Assembly: GCA_002839825.1 (NCBI GenBank)
Contig: PGYU01000023.1
Location: 1-45,284 of the forward strand
DNA length: 45,284 bases
Direction: 5' to 3'
Source: Ignavibacteriae bacterium HGW-Ignavibacteriae-1
GTDB taxonomy: Bacteria; Bacteroidota; Ignavibacteria; Kapaibacteriales; UBA2268
Shown here: piece after piece, positions 1 through 45,284 of the stretch
Numbering within the stretch: position 1 is the first letter of the stretch
Layout: each line of letters begins with the position of its first letter
Notes under the pieces: model-generated
Database searches by the model: none
Told to the model about the DNA's origin: nothing
The model's input: the letters and a program-made list of their open reading frames with translations, nothing else
Translations under genes and position numbers: made by a program

Positions 1-77
1 TGTCTCAAGGCGTATATAGTTTGCTGCTGAAAGCACCTTGGAGTATTCATTATCAACAAATTCTGATACTAAGATGA
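1..77 (+). CDS. 3' end of an upstream T9SS cargo paralogue (partial)
   Basis: Reading from base 3, the first 77 bases encode the last 24 residues of a protein that begins outside the window and stops at TGA 75-77. The residues (SQGVYSLLLKAPW..., ending in ILILR) are identical to the C-terminus of the next gene, because the DNA itself is an exact repeat of 3720-3796. They have the look of a T9SS type A sorting domain end (GxYxLxL followed by a basic final residue). The stop overlaps the start codon of the next gene in an ATGA arrangement, which suggests translational coupling within one operon. How much longer the gene is, and whether the identity continues to the left, cannot be seen. Confidence 0.7.
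   Translation, partial: SQGVYSLLLKAPWSIHYQQILILR
1..77 (+). repeat. 77-base direct repeat, copy 1
   Basis: Bases 1-77 are identical to 3720-3796. The sequences diverge at the next base (A here, C in the other copy). The left boundary cannot be determined because the window starts here, so 77 is a minimum length. This copy leads into a complete gene with its own signal peptide. Confidence 0.97.
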
Positions 78-3000
78 AATCAATCATTTTCGCATTTCTT
101 TTGCTCCTTGCGGTAAACACGCAAGCCCAAAATAACAGCCCGCAATTTTTCAATTGGCATTTTGGAACTCAGGAAGCTATTACTTTCAAAACTCCTGACT
201 TAGAGCCAATAAGCTATCGAAATAGTGCAATGATAACTCGTGGAGGCTGTGCCAGTATATCCGATATGGACACCAATTTGCTTTTTTATACAAACGGTCA
301 CCAAGTTTGGGACAGATTCAACAAACAAATGCCCAATGGATTTGATTTGAGAGGACATCAATCATCATCTCAATCCGCCTTAATTGTAAAAAAACCCGGC
401 ACTGATTATTTGTATTACATATTTACTGTTGGTGTTTGTAATGATTTCAGGAATGATAATTTTTGTTATTCAATAGTTGACATGAATGCCAATGGCGGTG
501 CCGGTGATGTTATTGAGAAAAATGTCCCAATTCATGACAGAATGGTTGCCGAAAAACAAACGGCTGTAATGCATCGAAACGGTAAAGATTATTGGATAAT
601 TGCTCATGAAGGTGAACACGATAATTTTGTAATTGCTTTACTTACTAAAAATGGTATTGAATCAGTCAAAGTCCAAAAAATTGGTCCTGAGTATTACAAA
701 ACAGATACAAATCTCTATGTAAAAAGAGGTAATCTCAAAGCAAACATTCGAGGCGATAGACTTGCGGCGGTCTCATATAGCCAAAATGAGATGCAATTTT
801 TCAAATTTGACAGAGAAAACGGTATTATTTTTGATTATCTGCCAATTTCATTAGATACTAATGGATATTATGGCGTCGAATTTTCACCTTCCGGTCAACT
901 ACTTTATGTTTCATTTAAGAAAATGAGAAATCACCCTCAAAATAAAATTTTGATACAATTCGATATTAATATTTATGACAGAGATTCGATTGAAAAATCT
1001 GTAGAAGTTATAATTGAAAGTTCGCGTGATGATCATTCAATTGGTTCCTTGCAAATTGCACCAAATGGTAAAATTTATTTTCCTCATTACTCGGTGGTTC
1101 ATTGGACAATTGAATATAATTTAGGTGTTATAAATAAACCGGATTTGCGTGGAACGGCATGTGAAGCAAGTAAGAAAGCCTTATTTCTGAAGAATCAACA
1201 GCCTAGTGATGGTTTACCAAATTATTGTGTAACAAAAATGCTTGAATACGAGGGATTAGAATTATATGGTCAGGATGTATGCTTAAATGAAGATATTGAA
1301 ATTGAAGTTGAAGTTTTCCCAAACGATTTAAATTATACATACAAATGGACTGGTCCGAATGGATTCACTTCTACTTTACCAATATTTAAAATTGAAAAAG
1401 CGATGTTAATAAATGAGGGTTATTATGTTGTGGAAACATATCAGTCTGGTGTTTTTAAAATGAAAGACTCCATTTATATAAAAGTTCATCCACTTCCGAC
1501 AGTCAAAATTATTGGTCCAAAGTTTATTTGTCAGCCAAGCTTTGAACTATTACAAGTTGATTCGGTCAAACCCGGTATAGAATATTTATGGTCTGATAGT
1601 ACAGTAGGCACTGAAATATGGGTCGATCAGCCCGGTTTATATCATGTTATTACCACAAATAGTTTTGGTTGCCGCGATACAGCTTATTTTAATTTAAAAG
1701 CAGGTGATTTAGATGTAGAAATATTAGGCGCTCTCGGAATTTGTGAAAATGGAGTAACAACTTTAAAAGCTAACAAAAGTAAGGCTATTGATGGTAGGAA
1801 TTATACATATCTATGGTCAACAGGCGACACTACAGAGAGTATAACTGTCTCAGAAGCAGGCGAGTATTCTTTGCAAATTATTAGAGAAGGTGGATGTTTT
1901 GGTTATGACACTGTTGATGTAGTGAATTTCCCGTCGCCTGAAATAGACTTTTCGCATCTCGGTAATTTGAGTATTTGTGATGAAAGCGGTATTAGGCTTT
2001 ATGTTAAGGCACATGATTTCAATTCGACATATGTTTGGGATGATGGGGTAGTCGGTTCATCTCGAGTTGTAACTACAACCGGAAAATACAAACTCTACGT
2101 CACAAATGCGAATTTGTGCATTGATTCAGCCGAAGTCGAAGTTAAATTTGGCGAGAAACCCGATGTAGAAGTCGAATTCAGCAATGATTTGAATATTTGC
2201 AGCGGTGATTCAGTTGTTGTTTCCGTTAATTTTGATACCGATAAAAACTCAATTAAGTGGAATGACGGAAGTACAGATTTAGCCCGGACTTTCTATGAAA
2301 GTGGGATATTCCGATGTGTCGTTTCAAATGATATTGGCTGCAGCGATACAACTGAATTTGAAATCAAAGTATTCGACATCGATAAACCTGAAATAATTGC
2401 CGACAAAATATACGTTTGCGAAGCCGGAACTCCCGTTACTTTATCCGCAAATCAAGTCTATCACGAATATTTATGGTCAAACGGCGCTACAACACAAAGC
2501 ACTGTGATTGATAAACAGGGCATTTATAAATTAATTGTTAGCAATGAAATTGGCTGCAGCGATTCAGCCGAAATTGAAATTTTCATAATGCCGATGAATA
2601 AACCTGAAATTGTAGCGAGCAAAAATTTCTTTTGCGAAAATGACACATTAACGCTTACCGCAAATGGAGATTACGCAACATATCAGTGGTCCGATGGCTC
2701 AACAAATTCGAGCATCATAGTCAGAAATTCAGGCACATATAAAGTAATTGTTTCCAATGAAATCGGATGTGTTGATTCAGCCGAGATATTCATAGATGCG
2801 ATACAAATTGCATTTGAATTCACCCAAAATAATTATGAAGGTGACATTAAGTGTACCGGCGAGGAATCAACAATAGTACTCAATTTGAGGAATTTGACTC
2901 AAACTGCGACTATAATTAATGAATTAATTCTCGAAAATCAAATAGACTTTCGTGTGATTTCGCCGAATTTGCCTTTCACATTGGCTGCGGATGAAAATCG

Positions 3001-3796
3001 AGAAATAATTATCGTCGCGAATTCGCTCGTCCCGGGGAATTTTGAAACGAGCATAAAAGCAATTTCTAACGAACCATGTTATTTCGAGACATCAACAAAT
3101 ATCACTCAAAAATTTATACAGGATATTAGCTTCAGTTTGCCCGATATTGAAGCTATTGCCGGGGAACAGCTTTGCATCCCGATTTACGGCAAAATCAATT
3201 GCGGCGCTTCGCCATTTGTTTCATCGGCTACCATTCAAATCAGTTTTGATGCGGAATATTTCAATCCTATTAGCCTCAAATCGGGAGCGAATTTTACAAA
3301 AGTCATCGAAAATGGCATTTGTACTGTGACTATTGATTACGCATCACTAAATCTTACAGAAACCGAAACAATGATTGACGAACTTTGCGGTGTAGTCCTT
3401 ATCGGTCAACCTGAAACAACACCATTGCAACTAACTTATGATGATGAAGCAAGCGATTTCATAGAAATTGAATCCGTTGATGGCAGCTTGAAAATCGAAG
3501 CTTGTGCAATTGAGGTTAGAGCTGTCCAATATTTCACCCCAACTGCAATGTCAGTTTCGCCACTTCCTGCAAATGACAACCTCAGCGTTACGATTGAATC
3601 AGGTTCTATTGGCACATTTGAACTCATTCTCGTCGCTTTCGACGGCACCCAAGGAGTTTTAAAAACATGGGAAAACATGCAATCAAGCTCGGTTGATTTA
3701 TTATTCGACGTTAGCAATTTGTCTCAAGGCGTATATAGTTTGCTGCTGAAAGCACCTTGGAGTATTCATTATCAACAAATTCTGATACTAAGATGA
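74..3796 (+). CDS. Secreted beta-propeller / Ig-like / cohesin-like protein with T9SS sorting domain
   Basis: Protein of 1240 residues, probably exported by Sec and then across the outer membrane by T9SS. I start it at ATG 74, which opens directly into a signal peptide (MKSIIFAFLLLLAVNTQAQ, cleavage after AQA or nearby); an ATG at 38 in the same frame would only translate the repeat. Residues about 25-390 form a beta-propeller-like N-domain typical of Bacteroidota surface proteins (ASISD, LLFYTNG, VWDR, QMPNG, YYIFTV). About 394-905 hold seven Ig/PKD-like modules with the pattern C...YLWS.G...G.Y...V.N..GC.D. About 1019-1140 form a cohesin-like module (LPDIEAIAGEQLCIPIYGKI). The T9SS type A domain lies at about 1152-1240. 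The substrate is unknown. It overlaps the preceding stop by ATGA. The last 77 bases are the second copy of the repeat. Confidence 0.85.
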   Translation: MKSIIFAFLLLLAVNTQAQNNSPQFFNWHFGTQEAITFKTPDLEPISYRNSAMITRGGCASISDMDTNLLFYTNGHQVWDRFNKQMPNGFDLRGHQSSSQSALIVKKPGTDYLYYIFTVGVCNDFRNDNFCYSIVDMNANGGAGDVIEKNVPIHDRMVAEKQTAVMHRNGKDYWIIAHEGEHDNFVIALLTKNGIESVKVQKIGPEYYKTDTNLYVKRGNLKANIRGDRLAAVSYSQNEMQFFKFDRENGIIFDYLPISLDTNGYYGVEFSPSGQLLYVSFKKMRNHPQNKILIQFDINIYDRDSIEKSVEVIIESSRDDHSIGSLQIAPNGKIYFPHYSVVHWTIEYNLGVINKPDLRGTACEASKKALFLKNQQPSDGLPNYCVTKMLEYEGLELYGQDVCLNEDIEIEVEVFPNDLNYTYKWTGPNGFTSTLPIFKIEKAMLINEGYYVVETYQSGVFKMKDSIYIKVHPLPTVKIIGPKFICQPSFELLQVDSVKPGIEYLWSDSTVGTEIWVDQPGLYHVITTNSFGCRDTAYFNLKAGDLDVEILGALGICENGVTTLKANKSKAIDGRNYTYLWSTGDTTESITVSEAGEYSLQIIREGGCFGYDTVDVVNFPSPEIDFSHLGNLSICDESGIRLYVKAHDFNSTYVWDDGVVGSSRVVTTTGKYKLYVTNANLCIDSAEVEVKFGEKPDVEVEFSNDLNICSGDSVVVSVNFDTDKNSIKWNDGSTDLARTFYESGIFRCVVSNDIGCSDTTEFEIKVFDIDKPEIIADKIYVCEAGTPVTLSANQVYHEYLWSNGATTQSTVIDKQGIYKLIVSNEIGCSDSAEIEIFIMPMNKPEIVASKNFFCENDTLTLTANGDYATYQWSDGSTNSSIIVRNSGTYKVIVSNEIGCVDSAEIFIDAIQIAFEFTQNNYEGDIKCTGEESTIVLNLRNLTQTATIINELILENQIDFRVISPNLPFTLAADENREIIIVANSLVPGNFETSIKAISNEPCYFETSTNITQKFIQDISFSLPDIEAIAGEQLCIPIYGKINCGASPFVSSATIQISFDAEYFNPISLKSGANFTKVIENGICTVTIDYASLNLTETETMIDELCGVVLIGQPETTPLQLTYDDEASDFIEIESVDGSLKIEACAIEVRAVQYFTPTAMSVSPLPANDNLSVTIESGSIGTFELILVAFDGTQGVLKTWENMQSSSVDLLFDVSNLSQGVYSLLLKAPWSIHYQQILILR
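3720..3796 (+). repeat. 77-base direct repeat, copy 2, at a gene-truncating junction
   Basis: Identical to bases 1-77. It encodes the end of the first full paralogue and its stop codon. Immediately after it (3797/3798) the sequence enters the middle of the N-domain of the next paralogue, with no start codon or signal peptide. The repeat therefore marks a junction where about 30-40 codons of the second paralogue are absent. Confidence 0.97.
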
Positions 3797-3866
3797 CTTC
3801 GGTGGCAGAGCTTCTATCACTTTTAATACGCCCAATCTTGAGCCGGTCATTTCCGGGCAAAGCAGT

Positions 3867-6800
3867 ATGGCTCAACTCGAAGGCAGCGCCAGCATTTCCG
3901 ACAAGTATGGCAATCTACTTTTTTACTCAAACGGAGTTAATGTTTGGGATAAAAATAATCTTCAAATGCCTAACGGATTCAAGCTTAGTGGTCATGCATC
4001 ATCTACACAAACGGTATTGATATTGCGTCAGCCCGGCAGTCGCAATATTCATTACATTTTTACCGTTGGCAAAGGTCCATATTTGGTTGACTCGCCTCAA
4101 GATTTTTGCTATTCTATTGTTGATATTGACGCAAATTTGGGAAATGGTGATGTTGTTGAGAAAAATATTTTGCTTCATCAACCTGTTACCGAAAAACTTA
4201 CAGCAGTTTTGCACAGCAACAATGAAGATTTCTGGGTGATTGCACATGAAATGGATTCACCAAGATTTGTTGTGGCACTTTTGACCAAAAATGGAATTGA
4301 GTATGTAAAAACACAATCAATTGGTCCATCTCATGACGCAGGTAGTGGCTTGAACAAAGACGGTGTAATCGGGCAAATGAAAGCAAATCGCAAAGGCGAC
4401 CGTTTGGCAGCTGTTACGAATACAAGCAAAGAGCTTCAGCTTTTCAAATTTGACCGTAACAAAGGCGAATTGTCCGATTTTGTCGCTGTCACTATGGATA
4501 CTGTCGCAGGATATTACGGTTTGGAATTTTCCGCATCGGGGCAATTTGTCTATGTAACAAATATCTTTACTCGCTTGTTGCAATTTGACATCAGTTCCTA
4601 CCAACGCCCAATTATCGAATCATCGCGAAAGCCAATTTATGATGAATATTCTACAGAAGTAGAGACTTTTGGGCAATTGCAAATCGGTCCAAACAATAAA
4701 ATATATCTTGCCATTCATAATTTGAAGGCACTTGGAGTAATCAACAAACCTGATTTGCCCGGCAACTCGTGCAATTTCCAATATGCTGGTTTTTTACTGA
4801 CGAAAGGCGGCTCTACATATGGTTTGCCGAATTTCCTTGTCACCGAATACGATTACCGATTGGAAATCTCGGCTCAAGACGTTTGCATTGGCGATACCAT
4901 AAACATTTCCGCGAGAGTTATACCGTCTGCGGATGAATATCGCTATGTTTGGCGAGGACCGAATTCATTTTATTCCGAATCCCAAAATATTACAATTGCT
5001 AATGCGCGTGATTTTAACGAAGGATATTATGTCCTCGAAGTATTTGAATTTTTTCATCTCCGATACAAAGACTCGGTCTATATCAAAGTTCACCCATTTC
5101 CCGAAGTTGAAATTGTCGGCACAGACACGATTTGTCCACCTGAAAAAGCGAATTTAAAAATCAAGAATAGTCAGCAGGGTGTAGCATATTTATGGTCAAC
5201 GGGAGAAATAGGGGATGAAATTTTCGTTGACAGTCCGGGCACATATCACGTAACAGCAACATCGAAAGCGGGATGCGTTGCGGATGCTTCATTTAATGTG
5301 TTTGCAGGGAACAATTTAATCGTAAATATCCTTGGGAAAAAAATCATGTGCGAAGGTGAATCCATCACTTTGAGCACTGACAGAGTCAGCGATATTGAGG
5401 GCGAATACACCTATTTGTGGTCAACCGGAGAAACAAGTCCCGAAATAATTGTAAGTACGCCGGGTAGTTATTCCGTCACTGTTTATCATAGCGGTGGTTG
5501 CACCGGAACTGATGAAATTCTTGTCGAAATTGCCCCAAATCCAATTGTGAAGCTGTCGCACGAAGGGACTTTCAATTTATGTGTCGGCGACGAAATGGAT
5601 ATTTGGGTAATTGACCCAATTGCTGAAAATAATTATTTTTGGCATGACGAAATGGCTGATTTGACGCGTAAAATAACTCAGACAGGAATATATAAAATTT
5701 ATGTAGTGAATGAGTTTGATTGCATAGATTCCGCCGAAGTCGAAATTATATTTCACGAAAAACCAATTTTTGATATAATTTATGATAATGATTTGATTTT
5801 TTGCAAAGGCGATTCGGTTAATGTTACGATAAATTATGATTTTGACAATGAAACAATACTTTGGAATGACGGAATTAGCGCAAGTTCCCGCACGATTCAC
5901 GAGAATGGGATCTATTCTTTCCGTATTACAAATCAATACGGCTGCTATGATAGCGCTGCATTTGAAGTACAAATTATTGAAATCGAAAAACCTGAAATTA
6001 TCCCAACTAAATATTTCGTTTGCGAAGGCGATACATTAACTTTGTTTGCCGTCGGAAATTATCATTCATATTTGTGGGATGATGGAACTACGTCGCCGAG
6101 CACAATTGTCAAAGGTGCGGGCAAATATAAATTATACGTCCGAAACGAATATGGGTGCACCGATTCGGCAGAAATCATAATCCAAGACATCAGCGTTGGA
6201 ATCAGTTTTTCGCAAGAGTTGTACGAAGGGGCAACTGTTTGCACTGGCAATGAATCAATAATCGAATTGACATTGAAAAACGATACTCAAACTGAAACAA
6301 TTATTAAGGAATTAATCCTTGACGATAATTCCAACTTCAGAATTATCTCACCAAAAGTTCCGTTTAAAATTGCAGCTTTAGACTCAGAGCCAATTTTAAT
6401 CGCATCATTTTCACAATCTACAGGAATATTTCTGACAAAAATTACAGCAATATCGGACGAACCTTGTTATACCGAATCATTTTCTGAGGCGAAGCAAATA
6501 TTTTATTTAACCAATATTGTGCGATTGCCGGATATGGTGGTAGATGCCGGAGAAAGTCTTTGCATACCAATTTATGGCAAAATTAACTGTGGAGCCACGC
6601 CCTTAGATTCTCGTGTGAAATTGGAAATAATTTTTGACGCAGAATATTTCAATCCGATTAGCCTAAAATCCGGCACTACTTTCACAAAAATTATCGAAAA
6701 TGGCATTTGCAAAGTAACTATCGAGTACGACTTATTGCTACTCACAGATTCGGAAGAAATAATTGATATGCTTTGCGGAGTGGCACTCATTGGCAGAGTT

Positions 6801-7190
6801 GTCCCGACAGAATTGATTTTTGCCGATGCTGACTGGCATGATAATTTAATTTCGACAGAAAAGATTAATGGAAGTTTGGCAATCGAAGCTTGTATAATTG
6901 AATTGCGTCCTATTAAATATATAACACCGCCAATACTGCAAATTGCCCCAAATCCTGCATCTGAAACAGTTAAACTTACTATCACAAGTACACAAGATGG
7001 AATGCATAACCTGAGTATCTTCGACCTGAGCGGCATTGAAATTGCATCATTTGATTTTATTAATTCAGATAATTCACCAAAAATTAATAATTTTTACTTA
7101 TATTCGAGTGATTTTAAAAACGGATTTTATATTATTCGTTTAAAAGCACCTGATACGGTGATATTTGAAAAATTGATAATTGAAAATTAA
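3867..7190 (+). CDS. T9SS cargo paralogue lacking its signal peptide (N-terminally truncated)
   Basis: From ATG 3867 the protein has 1107 residues, but homology to its neighbours runs back in frame to base 3798 (FGGRASITFNTPNLEPV, matching FGTQEAITFKTPDLEPI of the preceding gene). Between the in-frame stop at 3789-3791 and 3867 there is no ATG, GTG or TTG, so 3867 is only the first available start, not the ancestral one. The rest is intact: propeller-like N-domain (ASISDKYGNLLFYSNG), six Ig/PKD-like modules, the linker with SFSQELYEG, the cohesin-like module (LPDMVVDAGESLCIPIYG) and a T9SS type A domain (APNPASETVKL...NGFYIIRL). As assembled it could not be exported, so it is either a pseudogene, a recombination product or an assembly chimera. 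Its TAA overlaps the next ATG by one base (TAATG). Confidence 0.75.
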   Translation: MAQLEGSASISDKYGNLLFYSNGVNVWDKNNLQMPNGFKLSGHASSTQTVLILRQPGSRNIHYIFTVGKGPYLVDSPQDFCYSIVDIDANLGNGDVVEKNILLHQPVTEKLTAVLHSNNEDFWVIAHEMDSPRFVVALLTKNGIEYVKTQSIGPSHDAGSGLNKDGVIGQMKANRKGDRLAAVTNTSKELQLFKFDRNKGELSDFVAVTMDTVAGYYGLEFSASGQFVYVTNIFTRLLQFDISSYQRPIIESSRKPIYDEYSTEVETFGQLQIGPNNKIYLAIHNLKALGVINKPDLPGNSCNFQYAGFLLTKGGSTYGLPNFLVTEYDYRLEISAQDVCIGDTINISARVIPSADEYRYVWRGPNSFYSESQNITIANARDFNEGYYVLEVFEFFHLRYKDSVYIKVHPFPEVEIVGTDTICPPEKANLKIKNSQQGVAYLWSTGEIGDEIFVDSPGTYHVTATSKAGCVADASFNVFAGNNLIVNILGKKIMCEGESITLSTDRVSDIEGEYTYLWSTGETSPEIIVSTPGSYSVTVYHSGGCTGTDEILVEIAPNPIVKLSHEGTFNLCVGDEMDIWVIDPIAENNYFWHDEMADLTRKITQTGIYKIYVVNEFDCIDSAEVEIIFHEKPIFDIIYDNDLIFCKGDSVNVTINYDFDNETILWNDGISASSRTIHENGIYSFRITNQYGCYDSAAFEVQIIEIEKPEIIPTKYFVCEGDTLTLFAVGNYHSYLWDDGTTSPSTIVKGAGKYKLYVRNEYGCTDSAEIIIQDISVGISFSQELYEGATVCTGNESIIELTLKNDTQTETIIKELILDDNSNFRIISPKVPFKIAALDSEPILIASFSQSTGIFLTKITAISDEPCYTESFSEAKQIFYLTNIVRLPDMVVDAGESLCIPIYGKINCGATPLDSRVKLEIIFDAEYFNPISLKSGTTFTKIIENGICKVTIEYDLLLLTDSEEIIDMLCGVALIGRVVPTELIFADADWHDNLISTEKINGSLAIEACIIELRPIKYITPPILQIAPNPASETVKLTITSTQDGMHNLSIFDLSGIEIASFDFINSDNSPKINNFYLYSSDFKNGFYIIRLKAPDTVIFEKLIIEN

Positions 7191-9796
7191 TGCGTTTCAC
7201 AATAATTTTTGTTTTTTATTTTTTATTTTTTTCAACCGGTTCTTACTCTCAAAAAGAGAGCTATAGCTGGTATTTTGGTGCTAACGCCGCCATCACATTC
7301 GATACTCCCGATGGCGAACCAATTGCTTTGAATAATTCTCTGGTAAACACTCTGGAAGGCGTATCTTCGATTTCCGATTCAACCGGCAAATTGATGTTTT
7401 ACTCGGACGGCGTTCGCGTTTGGAATTCTCAACACAAGGTGATGAATCCGGACACATCAATGCACGGTCATTTCAGCTCAACACAAAGCGCTTTGATTGT
7501 CAAAAAACCCGGCGTCAATAGTATTTATTATATTTTTACTGTAGATGCAGGACAATATTTTGACAACATTGACCCAACCCAACCGGAAAACAAAGGGCTT
7601 TGCTGTACAGTAATTGATGCAGAGCTAAACGATGGTTTGGGAGAAATTGTTGAAATCAATACACTAATTCAAAAACCGGCAGCAGAAAAACTTACCGCCA
7701 CAATTCATTATAATAATCAAGACCTTTGGATAGTCAGCCATGAATGGAATAGTGACAATTTCATATCGGTTTTGCTTACTGACCAAGGAATTGAGGATGT
7801 GATAAATTCTTCCGTCGGCTTAAATTATACGGGTTCCTATCTTCGTTCAATCGGCATGATGAAATTTTCACCATGCGGTACTAAATTAGCTGCGGCTGTC
7901 AACGAGTATGATTTTGTGGAATTATATTCGTTCGATAATTCTACAGGTAAAGTTTTCGACCCTATTTCAATTCGTACTTTCGGCAGATATAGTAATTATG
8001 GAGTAGAATTTTCGCCAAACGGCAATAAACTCTATGTGTCAGATTTTACCCAACGTTCGATACATCAATATGATGTAACTGACTTAAATGCTGATTTAGT
8101 CAATTTAAGCGGACGTAAAATATATGGTAATAGTAACAGAGCCGTACCCGGAGCTTTGCAAATCGGTCCTAACGGTAAAATTTATATTGCTTTGCTTAAC
8201 TCAAATTATCTTGACGTTATCGAAAACCCGAATCTGACAGGCGATGAATGTAATTATCGTGCTGATGCGGTCAGATTAGCATCAGTGAAATTTTCTGCAA
8301 AATCACTCTATGGACTGCCGAATATGTCCCAAGGGTATTTCTTCATGAAAAGCAACTTGCGTGACACTATCGTTTGCGGCGGTGATAATTTAATTATTGA
8401 CCCTGTAACAAATGTATTATTTAACGAGATGACATTCATCTGGGAAGGTCCCAATGGATATATCTCTACAAAATATTTTCTAAAGATTGATGACTTTTCC
8501 GAAAATGATGCCGGTAAATATTATTTCAAAGCATTTTTCCGCGAATATGTGATTTCCGACAGCATTTTAATAAGCTATAGTCAAATTCCGATTGCGAAAA
8601 TAATCGGCGACAGCATAATTTGTTCCGATGCTCCAATCATACTGTCATCTCAATTCGAAGCTCACGAATACATTTGGTCAACGGGCGAATCTACTCAATC
8701 AATTGAAGTCAATCAACCCGGTACATATATTTTGACTTTGTTAAATGACGGGCATTGCTCGGACTCAGATACATTGCTTGTCAGAGCCGAAATTGCAAAG
8801 TTCGAATTTATCAATGCAAATGATGCTCAATTTGGCGAAATTTGCCTTGGGGAAAGTCTCGAAATAAATTTATCTATTAAAAATGTGACCGGAATTGACG
8901 TATTAATCAAAGATGTCAAGCTGCTTCATTCTTCGAGCGAGATTGAAATGAGCAATGCCATTAATATTTTAGTCAAAAAGGACGAGATTTTTGAACTAAA
9001 AAAGATTGTAAAATCTGATATTATTGCAATGGTTGATGATACTCTGACATTTATTATTTCTGATTTTTGCAAAGTTGAAGATAATTTGCCAATAAAAGGT
9101 AAAATTATCGCTATCAATACGATTTCTATTCCTGAGATTGAAACCGCTCCGGGCGATGATATTTGCATTCCGGTTTATGCAAGATTAGATTGCAACGATG
9201 CGCAAGAATTGGAATCAGATGTGGAATTTGAAGTTTCATTCAATGCTGACTATTTTTATCCAAATAATATTACTAATGGTGAAATAGTGTCCAATGAAGT
9301 TGTTGATGGGAAAAGAATTTTGAAAATGAAAATAGATGATTTTACTCTAAGCAATGGCGGAAATGAATTAACTCAAATTTGTGGCAAAGTACTAGTTGGC
9401 AATGATATTGACGAAGCGCTTGTGATAGACAATGCAGTGTGGGACAGCGATTTAATCAGAAGTTCCTATTCCTACGGCAACTTGAAAATTAGAGCTTGTG
9501 CTTTGGAAATCAGACCTATTAATTATTTCAAACCCGCTAGCTTGACCGTAAAATCTGCCATTGGCGAGCCACAAGTAAATATTTTGCTCGAAGGAATGAC
9601 AGAAGGCGAGTATGAATTAACAATTTTCAATTCAGCCGGATTTGAAATTGAAAACTATAATTATCATAATTTGCGAAAAGAATTATTTATACATGAAATT
9701 GAATTCAGTACTTCAACTCTGCCTACCGGAATTTACATCGCTACTTTGAAATCGCCTTGGAACTTTAAATCCGAAAAATTTATAATCGTTAAATAA
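7190..9796 (+). CDS. Secreted beta-propeller / Ig-like protein with T9SS-type C-terminus, short paralogue
   Basis: 868 residues; third full member of the tandem family. Signal peptide at residues 1-20 (MRFTIIFVFYFLFFSTGSYSQ). The N-domain at about 25-390 keeps the family motifs (WYFGANAAITFDTPDGEPI, SSISD, LMFYSDG, VWNSQHKVM, YYIFTVD). Only two Ig-like modules follow (about 395-530; YIWSTGESTQSIEVNQPG is clear), against seven and six in the two genes upstream. Then come the linker, the cohesin-like module (IPEIETAPGDDICIPVYARLDC) and a C-terminal domain ending in LPTGIYIATLKSPWN, consistent with T9SS sorting although the usual NP motif is degraded. Its start overlaps the previous stop (TAATG), which implies coupled translation. 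It converges with the minus-strand gene one base away, with no visible terminator. Confidence 0.85.
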   Translation: MRFTIIFVFYFLFFSTGSYSQKESYSWYFGANAAITFDTPDGEPIALNNSLVNTLEGVSSISDSTGKLMFYSDGVRVWNSQHKVMNPDTSMHGHFSSTQSALIVKKPGVNSIYYIFTVDAGQYFDNIDPTQPENKGLCCTVIDAELNDGLGEIVEINTLIQKPAAEKLTATIHYNNQDLWIVSHEWNSDNFISVLLTDQGIEDVINSSVGLNYTGSYLRSIGMMKFSPCGTKLAAAVNEYDFVELYSFDNSTGKVFDPISIRTFGRYSNYGVEFSPNGNKLYVSDFTQRSIHQYDVTDLNADLVNLSGRKIYGNSNRAVPGALQIGPNGKIYIALLNSNYLDVIENPNLTGDECNYRADAVRLASVKFSAKSLYGLPNMSQGYFFMKSNLRDTIVCGGDNLIIDPVTNVLFNEMTFIWEGPNGYISTKYFLKIDDFSENDAGKYYFKAFFREYVISDSILISYSQIPIAKIIGDSIICSDAPIILSSQFEAHEYIWSTGESTQSIEVNQPGTYILTLLNDGHCSDSDTLLVRAEIAKFEFINANDAQFGEICLGESLEINLSIKNVTGIDVLIKDVKLLHSSSEIEMSNAINILVKKDEIFELKKIVKSDIIAMVDDTLTFIISDFCKVEDNLPIKGKIIAINTISIPEIETAPGDDICIPVYARLDCNDAQELESDVEFEVSFNADYFYPNNITNGEIVSNEVVDGKRILKMKIDDFTLSNGGNELTQICGKVLVGNDIDEALVIDNAVWDSDLIRSSYSYGNLKIRACALEIRPINYFKPASLTVKSAIGEPQVNILLEGMTEGEYELTIFNSAGFEIENYNYHNLRKELFIHEIEFSTSTLPTGIYIATLKSPWNFKSEKFIIVK

Positions 9797-9797
9797 T

Positions 9798-12700
9798 TTA
9801 TTTATTGATTATAATTCCTTCGCTGATTATGCTGCCATCAAATTCGATTTTCAAAATATAATATCCGTTCGATAAATTGCTGAAACTAATTAATTCAGAA
9901 TGTGAACTTGTTTTCTTATCAAAATAGCTGCTCAAAACGGATTTGCCCGACAAATCAGTCAATTTAATATTGATTGCACCCGTAAATTGTCCTTCGAGAT
10001 TCAACCAAAAGTAATCTATCGCAGGATTTGGATAAGCGGAAGCAATCATATTTTGAATGAGTGCAGTATTTCGATTAAGTTTCAGAAATCCATTTTGCTT
10101 ATAAGTCAACTCAGTTGCTTTGTTACCTTCCGCAACTAAATCATTTAAAATCAATTGTTTATTGTCGGTAGAATTATATAACACAAAGTTCATTTTGTCG
10201 CCATTGTTGAATAATTTTGGATTCTCGTCCAAGACATCATTTCCCCAAACTGTCACAGGAGCAATTCCATCTTTAAACTTTGCAGCACCGGCAACTGTTC
10301 CCGAAGGCGTCAAAACTGCTATTTCTGAGCCGTCGGCTATCTCAGGCAAACTAATGAGCAATACGGAATTATTTGCCGTATAAAGCTCTTGTGGGCGGAA
10401 ATAAACAGCATCATATCTGTGGCGGTCAAAGTCTACACTCACCTTTTCTAAAGAATTTGGCGGATATTGCAAAGTGTCTTTATTTGTCAAATAAACTTGA
10501 TAGGCTTGCATTGGCATTAAATTCCCAATCATATTGATATCATACTCGGGTATATATACATTGCCTGCGTTATCTTTAGCGATAATCAAATTATCATTTT
10601 CGGTTAAGGGTGTAAAACAGCTTTCAGCATCGTAGGGGCTATCACGCAGATAAGAAATGATGTTCCAACCTGCATTGCAGTATATAGGGTAATCCTCAGG
10701 TTCAATCGCAGTGCCGACAACTTTGATTGTTTGCACCTTTTGCGAATAGACTTGGTAGCCTTGTGTCAAATCCCAATCACCGATAGTATTGACTTCAAAT
10801 TCCGGTATATAAACATTTCCTGCATTATCTTTGACAATAGAAATTTGATTTTTGATTGAATTAAAAATGCTATCCATATTTGGATTTGTTGCCAAGAAAA
10901 TTGACGAAACCATATTCCAACCGATAACAAGAGGTACAAAAGATGTATCGGCGTAATCGGGCATTCTTGAAATCACAGTTGTAGTGCCATCTACAAAGTG
11001 GTCAGGACCGGATTCGTAACGCGGAACAACTACGTATTGGTCGCCTGTGATTGCGTCAAATTGTTTGATTGTATATGATTCGTTGTCTGCCATTCCGTCT
11101 TTGACAGCAGTTTCGACATTATCGCCCCAAACAGTAATTTCCATATCGTTGCCATTCCAGATTGAAAATCCGGCACAATATAAATTGCTGTTTCGAGTGT
11201 AAAAAACGCCAATAGCATCGCCGACAGCCATGTAACGATTGCCAATTATTGGATTTACAGAAGCGGCGATTGAAATAGTCGAACTTTTGCCCGTGTTGTC
11301 TTTATAAGTCCAAACCGAATTGGGCGAAGCAACACCATCGAAAGCAAAGTAGGAATTCATATCGAGCGAAATCGCTTCGCTAATTTCCAAACTTCCGAAA
11401 CTGACTTGCCCGAAATAAATTCCGGCAATAACATGAGTACCGCCACCGATACTTGCAACCGCTCGCGCTTCCGAAAAAATTGAATTTGAGTCGCTTTTAG
11501 CGTATAACACCGAACCGTCCGAAGCTAAACGTAGGAAATAAGACGCTCTTGAAGCATCTGATTGAATTGTCGTTCCGCTAATCGTCGCTTCTGATGAATA
11601 ATAGCCTACAGCCATTACACCACCTGTCGCGTCAACTGAAATACCTTTGCCGACATCGAATCCCGGACCACCGATAGAGCGGCTCCAAATCCAATTTCCG
11701 GCTGTATCTAATTTTGTAATAAATCCGTCAGAATTTCCTGCACCGATTAAATATTGCTCCCCAAAAAGACATAAACCTTTGAAAGTGCCAGTTGCATAGA
11801 CATAACCCGAACTTGAAAATTTGACATTGGAGCCATATTCTTGGTATGAGTTTGTTCCGGCAGATACTGCCCATAACCATGTGCCTGAGCTATTTAATTT
11901 TGCTATAAAAATGTCATCGCCGCCGCCGGAAGTGACTGAATGAGTACCGAAAGTCGCAATATTTTCAAAACCACCTGTGATATACAAATTTCCGCTTGGG
12001 TCTATATCAATACCATGTCCAACATCGAATTGGCTGCTGCCACCCCGAACAGCCCATTGCCAAGCTCCGCTATTGTTCAATTTCGCAACGAAAACGTCAT
12101 CTCTGCCCGCAGAGAATAATCGCGTAGCTCCAAAATAAGGTTTATCCGAAAAGAATCCGGTAACGTAAATATTTCCTGCGGCGTCAGTTACAAGGGCTTT
12201 TCCTTCGTCAAATTCGTCTTCTCCTGCGATTGTAACCCATACCCAATTTCCGTTGGTATCAACTTTTGCAATGAAAATTTCCCCTTGTCCGGAGGAAACT
12301 CGTGTTATATTTCCAAATTTTGCCGTGACCGAAAAGTATCCGGTCAAGATTGCATTCCCAAGATGGTCAACTGCAATCCCGTTGGCTACATCGGGTTCGG
12401 TTCCACCTGCTTTTCTGCCCCAGAGCCAATTGCCGTTTCTGTCAGATTTTGCGACAAAAATATCGGCATCGCCCGAGGATTTGAGAGTATCATTCCCGAA
12501 AACGATTGTCCCGAAAAATGAGCCACACGAATAGAAATCACCATTTGTAAGTGCAGCTATAGAATTTACGTCAACATAACCAATTATTCCGCCCGTCCCC
12601 AAAGCCCAAGACCAATTACCTGAACTCGAAATTCGAGCAGCAAAAATATCCGAATTTCCTCGAGTATATAAAGTATCAGTCCCAAATACAGCATTATGAT

Positions 12701-13988
12701 AAAAGGCTCCAATCGGGTAAGAAATACCGTTTGTAGCTGTAGCAACGGTGAAGCAATCAACTGTGGTTTTCCCTGTGATGGCTTTAGCCCACTGAATTAC
12801 TCCCGATGAGTTTAATTTCATCAGAAAAGCATTTCTATCGCCGGAACTAACCAAATTTGTACCGCCGAAATTTGCGGTTCCGGTAAAGTAACCACTAACG
12901 TAGGAATTACCCGAATTATCCAAAGTTGCGGAATAGCCCTGCTCATAGCCATTGCTACCTGCTGCAGTAGCCCATAACCAAGAGCCGTTTTTGTCAATTT
13001 TTGCAACGAAAACATCTTCATTGCCGGGTGTTGGCAAAGGATAAGCGCCGAAGCTGAAAATTTTGACATAATAACCCGTTATGACTGCGTTGCCACCACC
13101 ATCTAAAGCAATAGAACGGCTATCTTCAGATGAGGTACTTCCGGCACCGGCTGCCCATTGAAATGCGCCGGACGAATCCATTTTTGCAACAAATACATCT
13201 TTTCCACCGCTTGAAATGATATTTTGCCCGCCGAAACTTGCAGTTCCGGCAAATCCACCCGTCAGATAAAGCATATTATCTGAACTGTAATATTTGATAG
13301 CAAGAGCTTCATCAACAGAGCTGCCTCCGGCTTTTTTAGCCCAAATGACATCACCGTTAGCACTATATTTGGCGACAAATATATCTCTTGAGCCGGAACT
13401 TGTAAGTATGATATCGCCAATTGTAATATTGCCGTCGAAACCGCCTGTAACGAAACAATTCCCTGCGGCGTCAACGTCAACCGCGTTACCGCGATTAAAC
13501 CCGTATCCGGGAGCAGATTTAGCCCATTGCCAAACTCCCGATGAGTTCAATTTTGCCACAAAAATATCTGTATTAGTAGAGCCTGAAATAGTATGTTCGC
13601 CAAAATTTGCTAAAGTATAAAAATATCCCGTTATGAAAACGTTGCCATTAGCGTCCACTGCTATTCCTCTGCCATAATCGGCATTTGAACCACCGGCGGA
13701 GCGTGCCCACTCCCAATAACCGTTTTTATTTAGTTTTGCTACGAAAATATCCCTATTGCCTGATGTCCTCAATGTGTCAGTATCGAACGCAATTTCTCCT
13801 TCGAAATAACCTGTCACAAGCACATTGCCCTGAAAATCAATAACCGATGCTGTTGCTTGGTCGTGAGCCGAGAAACCTGTGCCGTTTTTGAGAATTTCCG
13901 GTTTGAGTGTGTTTGTCCAATTTTGCCCCATCAAGGAGAATGGCACAAATAAAAAGAGAGTAAGTAATATATATCTAAGTAGCTTCAT
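9798..13988 (-). CDS. Giant SBBP-repeat secreted protein with T9SS sorting domain
   Basis: 1396 residues. I choose ATG at 13988 because it opens directly into a signal peptide (MKLLRYILLTLFLFVPFSLMGQN); an in-frame ATG at 14021 would add an 11-residue polar extension. Residues about 35-865 contain 13-14 copies of a roughly 60-residue SBBP (beta-propeller) repeat of the form DxxGNxxITGYFxGTAxFG...DIFVAKLNxxGxWxWAxxAGG. Residues about 880-960 form another beta module, and about 1020-1180 hold two related copies beginning GWNMVSS and GWNIISY, each with DNAGNVYIPE. A T9SS type A domain (AYPNPAIDYFWLNLEG...NGYYILKIEF) covers about 1310-1396. Likely a long surface or extracellular structural or adhesive protein; the ligand is unknown. 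It is divergent from truA and convergent with the paralogue array. Confidence 0.85.
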   Translation of the reverse strand: MKLLRYILLTLFLFVPFSLMGQNWTNTLKPEILKNGTGFSAHDQATASVIDFQGNVLVTGYFEGEIAFDTDTLRTSGNRDIFVAKLNKNGYWEWARSAGGSNADYGRGIAVDANGNVFITGYFYTLANFGEHTISGSTNTDIFVAKLNSSGVWQWAKSAPGYGFNRGNAVDVDAAGNCFVTGGFDGNITIGDIILTSSGSRDIFVAKYSANGDVIWAKKAGGSSVDEALAIKYYSSDNMLYLTGGFAGTASFGGQNIISSGGKDVFVAKMDSSGAFQWAAGAGSTSSEDSRSIALDGGGNAVITGYYVKIFSFGAYPLPTPGNEDVFVAKIDKNGSWLWATAAGSNGYEQGYSATLDNSGNSYVSGYFTGTANFGGTNLVSSGDRNAFLMKLNSSGVIQWAKAITGKTTVDCFTVATATNGISYPIGAFYHNAVFGTDTLYTRGNSDIFAARISSSGNWSWALGTGGIIGYVDVNSIAALTNGDFYSCGSFFGTIVFGNDTLKSSGDADIFVAKSDRNGNWLWGRKAGGTEPDVANGIAVDHLGNAILTGYFSVTAKFGNITRVSSGQGEIFIAKVDTNGNWVWVTIAGEDEFDEGKALVTDAAGNIYVTGFFSDKPYFGATRLFSAGRDDVFVAKLNNSGAWQWAVRGGSSQFDVGHGIDIDPSGNLYITGGFENIATFGTHSVTSGGGDDIFIAKLNSSGTWLWAVSAGTNSYQEYGSNVKFSSSGYVYATGTFKGLCLFGEQYLIGAGNSDGFITKLDTAGNWIWSRSIGGPGFDVGKGISVDATGGVMAVGYYSSEATISGTTIQSDASRASYFLRLASDGSVLYAKSDSNSIFSEARAVASIGGGTHVIAGIYFGQVSFGSLEISEAISLDMNSYFAFDGVASPNSVWTYKDNTGKSSTISIAASVNPIIGNRYMAVGDAIGVFYTRNSNLYCAGFSIWNGNDMEITVWGDNVETAVKDGMADNESYTIKQFDAITGDQYVVVPRYESGPDHFVDGTTTVISRMPDYADTSFVPLVIGWNMVSSIFLATNPNMDSIFNSIKNQISIVKDNAGNVYIPEFEVNTIGDWDLTQGYQVYSQKVQTIKVVGTAIEPEDYPIYCNAGWNIISYLRDSPYDAESCFTPLTENDNLIIAKDNAGNVYIPEYDINMIGNLMPMQAYQVYLTNKDTLQYPPNSLEKVSVDFDRHRYDAVYFRPQELYTANNSVLLISLPEIADGSEIAVLTPSGTVAGAAKFKDGIAPVTVWGNDVLDENPKLFNNGDKMNFVLYNSTDNKQLILNDLVAEGNKATELTYKQNGFLKLNRNTALIQNMIASAYPNPAIDYFWLNLEGQFTGAINIKLTDLSGKSVLSSYFDKKTSSHSELISFSNLSNGYYILKIEFDGSIISEGIIINK

Positions 13989-14136
13989 TTCAAAATTCCA
14001 ATTAAATTCATCATAAGTCAATCAACAGCATTTTGCAAAATCCATGCCATCAAATTTGTGAATTAGACGAACAAAAGATAAGATTAATGAGATGAATAAG
14101 TTATTTTTGCAGAATGTATAATTTCGGTTCAATTTG

Positions 14137-14883
14137 ATGTATTTGATTTTTGAAATAGAATATGATGGGACAAGCTACTCCGGATGGCAAAGGCAAAAGA
14201 ACGCCGTAACGATTCAAGGAGAGATTGAAAGAGCATTCCGCGAAATCACCGGACGTGAAATTTCGCTCACAGGTGCGGGGCGAACTGATGCCGGAGTTCA
14301 TGCAAGAGCGCAAATAGCACATGCCGAAATTGGCGATGAACTCGGAATAACAGCTGAGCAATTGCCATTAGCACTGAATTCCAAATTGAGCTTTGATATT
14401 CGAATCAAACGCATCGTTTTTTCGGAAGAAAAATTCCATGCTCGATTTGATGCCATTGCTCGCGAATATTCATATACAATCGTGACTCGATACAGCGTTT
14501 TTGACCGCCATTTTTGCACTCATATTCGCTACCCGATTGATAGAAATTTGCTTTTGCAATCCGCAGAATTATTTTTGCTCAAAGATGATTTCACTACATT
14601 TTCCAAACGCAATTCGGATATAATCAACAATGTTTGCGACGTAACGGTCAGCAAATGGGTTGTAGTTGACGAAAATACGTTGAGATATACAATTAGGGCA
14701 AACCATTTCCTTTATGGTATGGTTAGGTCGCTTGTTGGTACGATGCTCGATATTTCGCGAGGCAAACGTGATGCTTCTGAAATTGCAACTGCGCTATCCT
14801 GTCGCGACCGAAGTTTGCAGTCACCTTTGGCAGATGCTCGAGGACTTATACTCGAAAAAATATTCTATAAAAATTATTTATAA
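14137..14883 (+). CDS. truA: tRNA pseudouridine(38-40) synthase TruA
   Basis: 248 residues, normal for TruA. It isomerises uridines 38-40 in the anticodon arm of tRNAs in the cytoplasm. The N-terminal motif FEIEYDGTSYSGWQRQ and the catalytic motif GAGRTDAGVHA are both present, with the nucleophile at Asp51. The C-terminal half has FLYGMVRSLVGTML, also conserved in the family. I use ATG 14137; a TTG one codon earlier is possible but less likely. The gene reads away from the giant secreted-protein gene and is followed 65 bases later by the M48 protease. No terminator is visible between them. Confidence 0.96.
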   Translation: MYLIFEIEYDGTSYSGWQRQKNAVTIQGEIERAFREITGREISLTGAGRTDAGVHARAQIAHAEIGDELGITAEQLPLALNSKLSFDIRIKRIVFSEEKFHARFDAIAREYSYTIVTRYSVFDRHFCTHIRYPIDRNLLLQSAELFLLKDDFTTFSKRNSDIINNVCDVTVSKWVVVDENTLRYTIRANHFLYGMVRSLVGTMLDISRGKRDASEIATALSCRDRSLQSPLADARGLILEKIFYKNYL

Positions 14884-14948
14884 TAAACAAAATTCGTTCT
14901 AATGAGTCTAATATATATAATTCTACCAACTAATTATTAGGTTCGAAA

Positions 14949-15773
14949 ATGAGAACAGTTAAATTCTATTTGATTTATGCGGTTATGGCAATCGCAACTA
15001 TGGGAACATTCAATGGCTGCGAAAGCGGCACCGGTATCGGTGATTTGAATTTGTATTCCCCTTCCGATGATGCTCAAATGGGAGCACAGTTAGACGCTGA
15101 AATCAGAAATATGCCAAACGAATACCCAATTTACAACAATGCGGCGGCAACGCAGTATTTGCAAGATATAATGAACGAAATTCTTATATCGGATGAAATC
15201 GAATACAGAGAAGTGTTCAATTACAAAGTTACGATTATTCAAAGCGAGACAATCAATGCTTTTGCAACTCCCGGTGGATACGTTTATTTTTTCACAGGAA
15301 TGTTAAAATTTTTGGAAAATGAAGCTATGCTTGCATCGGTAATGGCACATGAAATAGCCCATGCAGAAAGGCGACATGCTACCCAAAGAATGACAAAGCA
15401 ACTGGGATTATCGGTACTTCTAAGTGTAGTACTTGGAAATAATCCTGCTCAATTGACTGAAATTGCAGCTAACCTATTTTCAGGACTCGAACTACTGAGA
15501 AATAGTCGCTCAGATGAAGCAGAATCTGACGAATACAGTTTCAAATATTTGCAAACTACAAAATGGTACCCGGGTGCAGGAAAGATGTTTTTCGAACTCG
15601 TCTCCCAAGGTGGAACAACAGGTGCTATCGAGGAGTTACTATCAACTCACCCACCTGATGAAAAGCGAATTGCAGCAATCGAAGCTATGATTAAAGCAAA
15701 TAATATACCTCCACCAACAGAAGCTAATTTATTTACTCAAAGATACCAACAATTCAAACAAACACTCAACTAA
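14949..15773 (+). CDS. M48-family metalloprotease, probable lipoprotein
   Basis: 274 residues. The N-terminus is a lipoprotein-like signal (hydrophobic segment 6-20, lipobox-like TFNGC with Cys24), so the protein is probably anchored on the periplasmic side of a membrane. The zinc motif HEIAH is at 134-138, preceded by NAFATPGGYVYFFTGML (the conserved NAFA.PGG.V.V..G segment). The third zinc ligand is probably Glu190 in SRSDEAESDEY, the ExxxD motif of the family. HPPDEKRI near residue 235 matches the STHP.. motif of BepA/LoiP-like proteases, which act in outer-membrane protein quality control. Function here is by family only. It lies 13 bases before pyrF. Confidence 0.9.
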   Translation: MRTVKFYLIYAVMAIATMGTFNGCESGTGIGDLNLYSPSDDAQMGAQLDAEIRNMPNEYPIYNNAAATQYLQDIMNEILISDEIEYREVFNYKVTIIQSETINAFATPGGYVYFFTGMLKFLENEAMLASVMAHEIAHAERRHATQRMTKQLGLSVLLSVVLGNNPAQLTEIAANLFSGLELLRNSRSDEAESDEYSFKYLQTTKWYPGAGKMFFELVSQGGTTGAIEELLSTHPPDEKRIAAIEAMIKANNIPPPTEANLFTQRYQQFKQTLN

Positions 15774-15786
15774 TTTACTGAGATGA

Positions 15787-16593
15787 ATGGACGCATATAC
15801 TAAACTTAACGAAGCTATCCGAAATAACGGCTCGATGCTATGTATCGGATTGGACAGTGAGATTAACAAATTACCGACTTTTTTACAAGATGATTTAAAT
15901 GGTTTGCTCAATTTTAATTGCTCAATCATTGAAGCAACTCAAGATATTGTATCATCTTACAAAATCAACTTTGCTTTTTATGAGCAATACGGGGCAACGG
16001 GAATCGAAGTGATGAAGAAAACCTTCGATTACATTCCCGCGGACATAATGAAAATTGCCGATTGTAAGCGTGGCGATATCGGCAATACTTCGTATGCTTA
16101 TGCAATGGCTTGTTACGAGCATTTCGGTGCAGATGCAGTGACATTGCATCCATACATGGGATTGGATTCGGTGAAGCCATTTTTGGATTTCCCTGATAAG
16201 TTCGTTTTCATGCTTGCCCGAACGTCTAACAAAAGTGGCGATGACTTCCAAAGCCTAATTTGCGACGGCGAACCGCTTTATAAGCATGTTGTCCGAAAAA
16301 GTCTCGAATGGGGCGGAGCAGACAAAATCGGTTTCGTAGTTGGAGCTACTCGTCCGGAAGAATTAGCTGAAATCCGCCAAATTGCACCCGATAGTGTGTT
16401 TCTCGTGCCGGGTATTGGGACTCAAGGTGGAGATTTGAAAGCTTCAATCAAGGCGAATAATTCTGGGACAGCTATTTTCAATGTATCTCGCGGTATAATT
16501 TATGCTTCGGATTCGGACGACTTTACAATCAAAATCCGCGAAGTAGCACAAAATTACAGAGATGACATTAATAATACGCTTTACGATTTGTAA
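15787..16593 (+). CDS. pyrF: Orotidine 5'-phosphate decarboxylase (type 2)
   Basis: 268 residues. It catalyses the last step of de novo UMP synthesis, OMP to UMP plus CO2. The active-site motif is ADCKRGDIGNT at 91-101, with Lys94 and Asp97 as the central catalytic residues, and the preceding CIGLDSE holds the substrate-binding Asp. The DCKRGDIGNT form and the longer length mark the type 2 subfamily. VPGIGTQGGD near residue 200 is the phosphate-binding loop. It starts 13 bases after the M48 gene stop and converges with the membrane-protein gene, stops 8 bases apart. Confidence 0.95.
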   Translation: MDAYTKLNEAIRNNGSMLCIGLDSEINKLPTFLQDDLNGLLNFNCSIIEATQDIVSSYKINFAFYEQYGATGIEVMKKTFDYIPADIMKIADCKRGDIGNTSYAYAMACYEHFGADAVTLHPYMGLDSVKPFLDFPDKFVFMLARTSNKSGDDFQSLICDGEPLYKHVVRKSLEWGGADKIGFVVGATRPEELAEIRQIAPDSVFLVPGIGTQGGDLKASIKANNSGTAIFNVSRGIIYASDSDDFTIKIREVAQNYRDDINNTLYDL

Positions 16594-16601
16594 TTGAATT
16601 C

Positions 16602-18182: not shown

Positions 18183-18256
18183 TTCCAAATCAAAATCCGC
18201 TTATATTCATCGAATAGTAATCGGAGAAACTAAATATTATTGTATAGCATTGGAAT

Positions 18257-44988: not shown

Positions 44989-45284
44989 TTGAACAGGATT
45001 ATCAAGATTTCGGGATGGACAGGATTAATACAATTTAACCACAAAGGTCACAAAGAATACGCAAAGAACACAAAGAAACCCCAAAAGTCGTTCCCGCTCT
45101 ATCAAGAGCAGGGTTAGGGGGTGTTACGTAAACTTATTTCAGGACGAACAATACAATTTAACCGCAAAATCATTTTGAACAGGATTATCAAGATTACAAG
45201 ATTGGCAGGATTAAAATCAAAACGAATACAATTTAACCACAAAGGTCACAAAGAATACGCAAAGAACACAAAGAAACCCCAAAA
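44989..45284. repeat. Composite extragenic repeat array; contig ends inside it
   Basis: Two unit types alternate. Unit A, TTGAACAGGATTATCAAGATT, occurs at 44989-45009 and 45175-45195. Unit B, a 60-base segment starting AATACAATTTAACCACAAAG, occurs exactly at 45027-45086 and 45225-45284, and a partial copy of its start lies near 45149-45170. Between the copies lies a hairpin-forming stretch (CCCGCTCT...AGAGCAGGG, about 45093-45115). Unit B itself contains short internal repeats of CAAAGAA. From the rny stop (44859) to the end of the window there is no gene. The window ends exactly with the last base of unit B. Confidence 0.9.

What the first reader, a model, noticed from the sequence alone, without database searches (positions are those of the whole stretch)
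3720..3870. 77-base exact repeat at a junction that decapitates a secreted protein: recombination or assembly chimera
Seen: bases 1-77 equal 3720-3796 exactly and then diverge at once. After copy 1 comes a normal start and signal peptide. After copy 2 the sequence enters the next paralogue at codon FGG (3798), in a different frame, with no start codon and no signal peptide, although homology to its siblings is perfect from that very base. The window also starts at the first base of the repeat. Inference: either two paralogues recombined and deleted the 5' end of the second, or the assembler joined two paths through a shared k-mer; 77 is a k-mer length commonly used by de Bruijn assemblers. If a chimera, the gene order and copy number in this array are unreliable.
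Basis: partly seen in the sequence, partly recalled or inferred. Interest (0 to 1): 0.75.

Follow-up and report, generated by a model that had tools for sequence, protein, structure and literature searches.

The report
Missing gene start is assembly error
A secreted-protein gene in this draft bacterial genome seems to have lost its start, but a close relative carries the start intact and the break falls where the assembly programme would stop at a repeat, so the loss is most likely a computing error and ordinary.

Summary
The repeat is real; the decapitation probably is not. Window 1-77 equals 3720-3796 exactly, and the same 77 bases end another contig (C13) of this genome. The window is all of contig C37. 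In a same-genus genome (G002) the repeat (76/77) is followed by a normal start, a signal-peptide-like stretch, then FGG; 82 of those bases are absent between 3796 and 3797. A search of the assembly with the relative's version found no other home for them. Contig ends here follow an overlap of 79, not 77: 5 of 5 same-side sharing pairs share exactly 79. At overlap 79, a graph simulation gives a unitig of exactly 3796 bases (= window 1-3796) only if the second repeat copy also continued into 'aa', as the relative's does. So 3796|3797 looks like a graph boundary where a join dropped about 82 bases. The gene body shows the same purifying selection as its neighbours. Gene order is supported by G002; the copy number of the gene III unit is not. 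Related arrays do recombine (G001 has a hybrid gene), so a true deletion is not fully excluded. No reads were available. Low interest.

The parts
1..77 (+). Repeat copy 1: the 3' end of gene II, whose body is on contig C13 (C13 ends with these same 77 bases), up to the ATGA stop/start overlap with gene III
74..3796 (+). Gene III, 1240 aa, with a signal-peptide-like N-terminus (by eye; no predictor run); paralogue of gene II
3718..3796 (+). Repeat copy 2 in full (79 nt shared with the end of C13): 3' end of gene III
3796..3797 (+). Junction: inferred contig-graph boundary at which about 82 bases (start and signal-peptide-like region of gene IV) are absent compared with the same-genus genome G002
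3795..7190 (+). Gene IV body, 1131 codons without a stop inside, T9SS type A sorting domain at the C-terminus; 5' end missing in this assembly
7190..9796 (+). Gene V, 868 aa, intact paralogue
45027..45284 (+). Right contig end in a dispersed repeat family of this genome

Best explanation
The window is a contig of a draft genome whose contig ends look like those of a de Bruijn-type assembler. Two tandem paralogues, II (end of contig C13) and III (window 74-3796), have identical 3' ends that run into the start of the next gene. This makes a repeat of about 81 bases (tt + the 77 + aa), where the graph has two ways in and two ways out. The assembler therefore ended contigs there: C13 stops at the end of the 77, and C37 starts at its beginning. 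Window 1-3796 is the loop unitig of gene III between the two repeat copies. It was then joined to the contig of gene IV, and in that join the first about 82 bases of gene IV after ATGA (signal-peptide-like stretch and linker to FGG) were lost. In the organism the array is most likely I-II-III-IV-V with IV intact. Shown: the repeat, its place at the end of C13, the 79-base sharing at contig ends, the intact gene IV in G002, no better home for the relative's segment in the searchable assembly, and purifying selection on IV. Inferred: that reads with the intact start exist, and that the joining step dropped the bases. Which programme did it, and why 82, is not known.
For: (a) The 77-mer lies at 100% at C37:1-77, C37:3720-3796 and C13:22863-22939, and C13 is 22939 long. 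(b) Of 86 contig termini (43 contigs; the two of C10 read N, leaving 84), 5 of 5 same-side pairs sharing 15 or more terminal bases share exactly 79; a four-contig knot dovetails by 74, giving a repeat of 84 entered 79 deep from each side. The C13 end and the window up to 3796 also share exactly 79. (c) Unitig simulation at overlap 79: a lost segment beginning aa + non-t gives a unitig of exactly 3796 bases starting and ending with the 77; a real deletion gives 3798, starting two bases earlier than observed; at overlap 80 or 81 a real deletion gives no break at all. (d) G002 has the repeat (76/77) followed by AAAAAATC... and MKKIIFAFFLIAAVSVQAQQKGKEYYNWYFGGKASITF; window 3796-16876 aligns to it at 89.3% from the last base of the missing 82 onward. 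(e) The relative's segment finds in G000 only the starts of genes II (75%) and III (34 bases), plus eight matches of 16-34 bases at E 0.16-0.56. (f) dN/dS of IV against G002 is 0.114 (first 300 codons 0.051), against 0.130, 0.188 and 0.112 for I, II and V.
Against: No reads were available. The two 77-base dovetails (C13/C37 and C2/C16) would also fit a graph with overlap 77 plus a real deletion, if contigs run on through the short repeat edge; only the other contig ends argue for 79. The lost-segment model fits the observed ends untrimmed only at overlap 79, not at 77, 80 or 81. Three shorter dovetails (27, 18 and 15 bases) and shared stretches not flush with the ends follow no rule. Contig C10 (2250 bases) reads N at both ends, so the missing segment could not be sought there. 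The dN/dS test cannot see a very recent deletion. The length 82 is unexplained (77 + 82 = 159 = 2 x 80 - 1 may be coincidence). No second join of this kind was shown. Neighbouring genomes do show real recombination in this array.
Confidence: 0.88

Rival explanations
1. A real deletion: recombination in the organism removed the start and signal-peptide region of gene IV, leaving a gene that can no longer be secreted.
For: Arrays in the same genus vary: G002 has four genes (I, II, IV, V), G001 three, its middle gene II-like for about 3200 nt and IV-like for about the last 600; the last 200-nt window of II and III is 96% identical against 51-81% in the other windows. The sequence as deposited shows it. 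An overlap-77 graph with a real deletion fits the C13/C37 ends.
Against: Contig-end geometry does not fit at the overlap of 79 that 5 of 5 same-side pairs show; gene IV shows no relaxed selection; the two sides of the junction, compared with G002, share one base only; the junction lies exactly at the base where contig C13 also ends.
Confidence: 0.08
2. A mixed population: some cells carry the intact gene IV (which makes the 81-base repeat in the graph), others a real deletion, and the assembly kept the deleted form.
For: Would fit both the graph geometry and the deposited junction.
Against: Needs two events where one is enough; strain variation could not be examined here.
Confidence: 0.03
3. 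The junction is real and functional: a +1 shift at AGA-TGA-C (as at the prfB shift site, recalled) fuses III and IV into one secreted protein.
For: TGAC at 3794-3797, and the frame of IV is +1 to that of III.
Against: AGA-T is not a slippery site known to me (recalled); G002 carries II and IV as separate intact genes; the geometry argues that the junction is not real.
Confidence: 0.01

Closest known systems
Local assembly errors and repeat-bounded scaffold ends in metagenome assemblies (Chen et al. 2020, PMC7111523; abstract, opening and passages seen)
   Same: Scaffold ends keep non-unique sequence and often overlap perfectly by a length set by the largest k-mer; local assembly errors lack support by any read and lead to incomplete genes.
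   Different: Here the suspect join carries no Ns and drops about 82 bases; lack of read support could not be tested, and the assembler is not known.
T9SS type A sorting-domain proteins (TIGR04183 / PF18962)
   Same: Gene IV passes both curated cut-offs at its C-terminus.
   Different: Gene III has no TIGR04183 or PF18962 hit at E up to 0.001, and gene V is below both cut-offs.
Tandem paralogue arrays evolving by unequal recombination and gene conversion (general knowledge)
   Same: Copy number 3, 4 and 5 in three congeners (5 as assembled), homogenised 3' ends of II and III, a hybrid gene in G001.
   Different: Nothing special seen.

Membership tests
Local assembly error at a graph repeat | Junction coincides with a contig-graph boundary | tested here: met
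   C13 ends at the same base and shares 79 nt; a simulated unitig equals window 1-3796 in length and ends
Local assembly error at a graph repeat | Consensus lacks support by any single read | not testable with these tools
   no reads held
Local assembly error at a graph repeat | Closest relative has the sequence intact | tested here: met
   G002 C21, repeat followed by a full N-terminus
Real deletion / pseudogene | Relaxed selection in the truncated gene | tested here: not met
   dN/dS 0.114 against 0.112-0.188 for neighbours; insensitive to a recent event
Real deletion / pseudogene | Contig ends as expected from a 79-base repeat in a graph of overlap 79 | tested here: not met
   C37 would start two bases earlier; would be met at overlap 77
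   5 of 5 same-side pairs share 79 and the knot dovetails by 74; the two 77 dovetails fit either overlap
T9SS type A sorting-domain protein (gene IV) | C-terminal sorting domain above the curated cut-off | tested here: met
   TIGR04183 29.4 bits (cut-off 23), PF18962 30.2 (cut-off 27)
T9SS type A sorting-domain protein (gene IV) | N-terminal signal peptide | tested here: inconclusive
   absent in the window as assembled; present by eye in the G002 orthologue; no predictor run

The most novel reading that the evidence does not exclude
The deletion is real and perhaps variable within the population: recombination through the shared 3' ends of the paralogues switches the export of one array member off by removing its signal peptide.
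Probability: 0.06. Interest if true: 0.4.

Novelty: not a real feature. Interest (0 to 1): 0.12.

Why it matters
It warns that gene IV in this record is probably wrongly truncated and should not be read as a pseudogene or a cytoplasmic form. It also shows a check that needs no reads: measure the overlap rule from contig ends, then ask whether a suspicious junction lies at a graph boundary, and compare with a congener. The array itself is a small example of paralogue turnover.

Tried and rejected
k = 77 as the assembler's overlap: judged unlikely because 5 of 5 same-side terminus pairs share 79. Gene order wrong: judged unlikely, since G002 has I, II, IV, V in this order on one contig. The missing start lying elsewhere in the assembly: searched with 106 bases of G002, 82 of them the missing ones; only the starts of paralogues II and III, plus eight short matches at E 0.16 or more; contig C10 reads N at its ends and could not be judged. 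Other exact copies of the terminal repeats inside contigs, to find a second such join: four searches, for C1/C24, C11/C39, C2/C16 and C1/C5, showed no exact copy beyond the known ends; the C9/C11/C13/C35 knot was not searched. So whether such joins are systematic is not shown. A first scan of genome contigs with gene IV gave no relative. The second, with alignment A1, found 253 stretches and kept 79 loci; only their titles and the contig length of one were used. A paper search for T9SS, paralogues, tandem and gene conversion (at least 5 of 6 terms) listed 9 papers, none opened. Two searches on assemblers (2 listed, 24 found and 12 listed) were seen as listings only; the one paper used, PMC7111523, was fetched by its DOI from recall and seen as abstract, opening and passages.

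Full report
Observation. The window is the whole of contig C37 of its genome (45284 bases; the genome has 43 contigs and 3,227,209 bases). Bases 1-77 and 3720-3796 are identical and diverge at once. After copy 1 gene III begins normally; after copy 2 the sequence enters gene IV at D-FGG in another frame, with no ATG, GTG or TTG of that frame before 3867. The same 77 bases occur once more in the genome at 100%, at C13:22863-22939, and C13 is 22939 bases long, so C13 ends with the repeat exactly where C37 begins with it; a fourth match, C13:19182-19240, is 80%. The last gene of C13 (gene II) ends there with its stop codon. The array is thus I and II on C13, then III, IV and V on C37.

The overlap rule. 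I fetched 300 bases from both ends of the contigs (the C13 end, C37 from the window). Of 86 termini, the two of C10 read N. Among the other 84, five pairs of same-side ends share 15 or more terminal bases, and all five share exactly 79. Dovetails of 15 or more were 77 (C13/C37 and C2/C16), 74 (four pairs among C9, C11, C13 and C35, one knot around a repeat of 84), and 27, 18 and 15 (three pairs, not explained; the 18 involves the window's right end). Some ends share stretches that are not flush with the end, such as about 78 bases for C18/C33 and 58 for C20/C39. A repeat of length R entered 79 deep from both sides gives a dovetail of 158 - R: 74 for 84, and 77 for 81. The end of C13 and the window up to 3796 share 79 as well. 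So 3796 is where a contig would have ended, and 77 is then a by-product rather than k.

Simulation. I built single-strand unitigs from the C13 end plus the window to base 6000 under two models, at overlaps 77, 79, 80 and 81. With overlap 79 and a lost segment that starts aa + non-t after copy 2, the gene III unitig is exactly 3796 bases, starting and ending with the 77, as window 1-3796 does. With a real deletion at overlap 79 it is 3798 and starts two bases earlier than C37 does; at overlap 80 or 81 there is no break. At 77, 80 and 81 the lost-segment model misses the observed ends by two, one and two bases (an overlap of 81 with two bases cut from every contig end would also fit). A real deletion with overlap 77 would fit the C13/C37 ends, if the contig runs on through the short repeat edge, but not the other contig ends. 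The lost segment was a random stand-in; only its first three letters matter for the geometry.

The relative. A search of 40 genomes, the window's own included, with the first 422 codons of gene IV found it at 93% protein identity in G002 (same genus). There the repeat (76/77) at the end of gene II is followed by AAAAAATCATT... and MKKIIFAFFLIAAVSVQAQQKGKEYYNWYFGGKASITF. This is aa + non-t, as the geometry requires. L035 (C13 from base 8000) 5529-14940 aligns to G002 L179 1-9412 (88.5%) and window 3796-16876 to 9494-22574 (89.3%). As the repeat ends at 9412 = 3796, bases 9413-9494, 82 in all, are missing in the window, and gene III is extra between II and IV. The G002 segment finds only the starts of genes II and III in G000 beyond eight matches at E 0.16 or more; C10, which reads N, could not be judged. 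Nei-Gojobori dN/dS between G000 and G002 is 0.130 (I), 0.188 (II), 0.114 (IV) and 0.112 (V); for the first 300 codons of IV it is 0.051. The body of IV shows no decay, though a recent loss would not show.

What is real. The array does recombine. In G001 (same genus) the middle gene is II-like over about 3200 nt and IV-like in about the last 600 (83% to IV and 44% to II in the last window), and the array has three members; G002 has four; G000 has five as assembled. II and III are 51-81% alike in 18 of 19 windows of 200 nt, but 96% in the last. The shared 3' ends are what the assembler stumbled over. Gene IV carries a T9SS type A sorting domain above both curated cut-offs; III has no such hit at E up to 0.001 and V is below the cut-offs.

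Order and copy number. In a graph with II and III both leading into the repeat, and III and IV both leaving it, the only linear order is II-(III)n-IV with n of at least 1 (inference). This matches G002 around the insertion. n cannot be had without depth.

Literature. Chen et al. 2020 (PMC7111523; abstract, opening and passages) describe scaffold ends that often overlap perfectly by a length set by the largest k-mer, and local assembly errors, suspected to be prominent in IDBA-UD assemblies, and they say that leaving out curation propagates incomplete or incorrect genes. Which assembler made this genome is unknown to me. Why 82 bases were lost is unexplained.

Verdict. Observation confirmed; decapitation most likely an assembly error (0.88); a real deletion is the main rival (0.08).

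Noticed in passing
45027-45284: The right end of the contig is a dispersed repeat (AACCACAAAGGTCACAAAGAA...): 43 matches in the genome at E up to 0.001, the window's own included; matches lie within 500 bases of the ends of C14, C21 and C34 too.
   Followed up: partly
The other 78 titles kept are largely Bacteroidota, with some Ignavibacteria, Kapaibacterium and Chlorobiota, so the title looks doubtful.
   Followed up: no
L180 4767-8498 (-): The middle array gene of G001 is a II/IV hybrid, a sign of real recombination in the array.
   Followed up: yes
L189, G000:C2:1-77 and 578-654: The C2 start repeat has a 92% copy 577 bases downstream; the C16/C2 break may be a similar tandem knot.
   Followed up: partly
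3794-3797: The stop of gene III as assembled is TGAC with gene IV in the +1 frame, superficially like a prfB-type shift site (recalled).
   Followed up: partly
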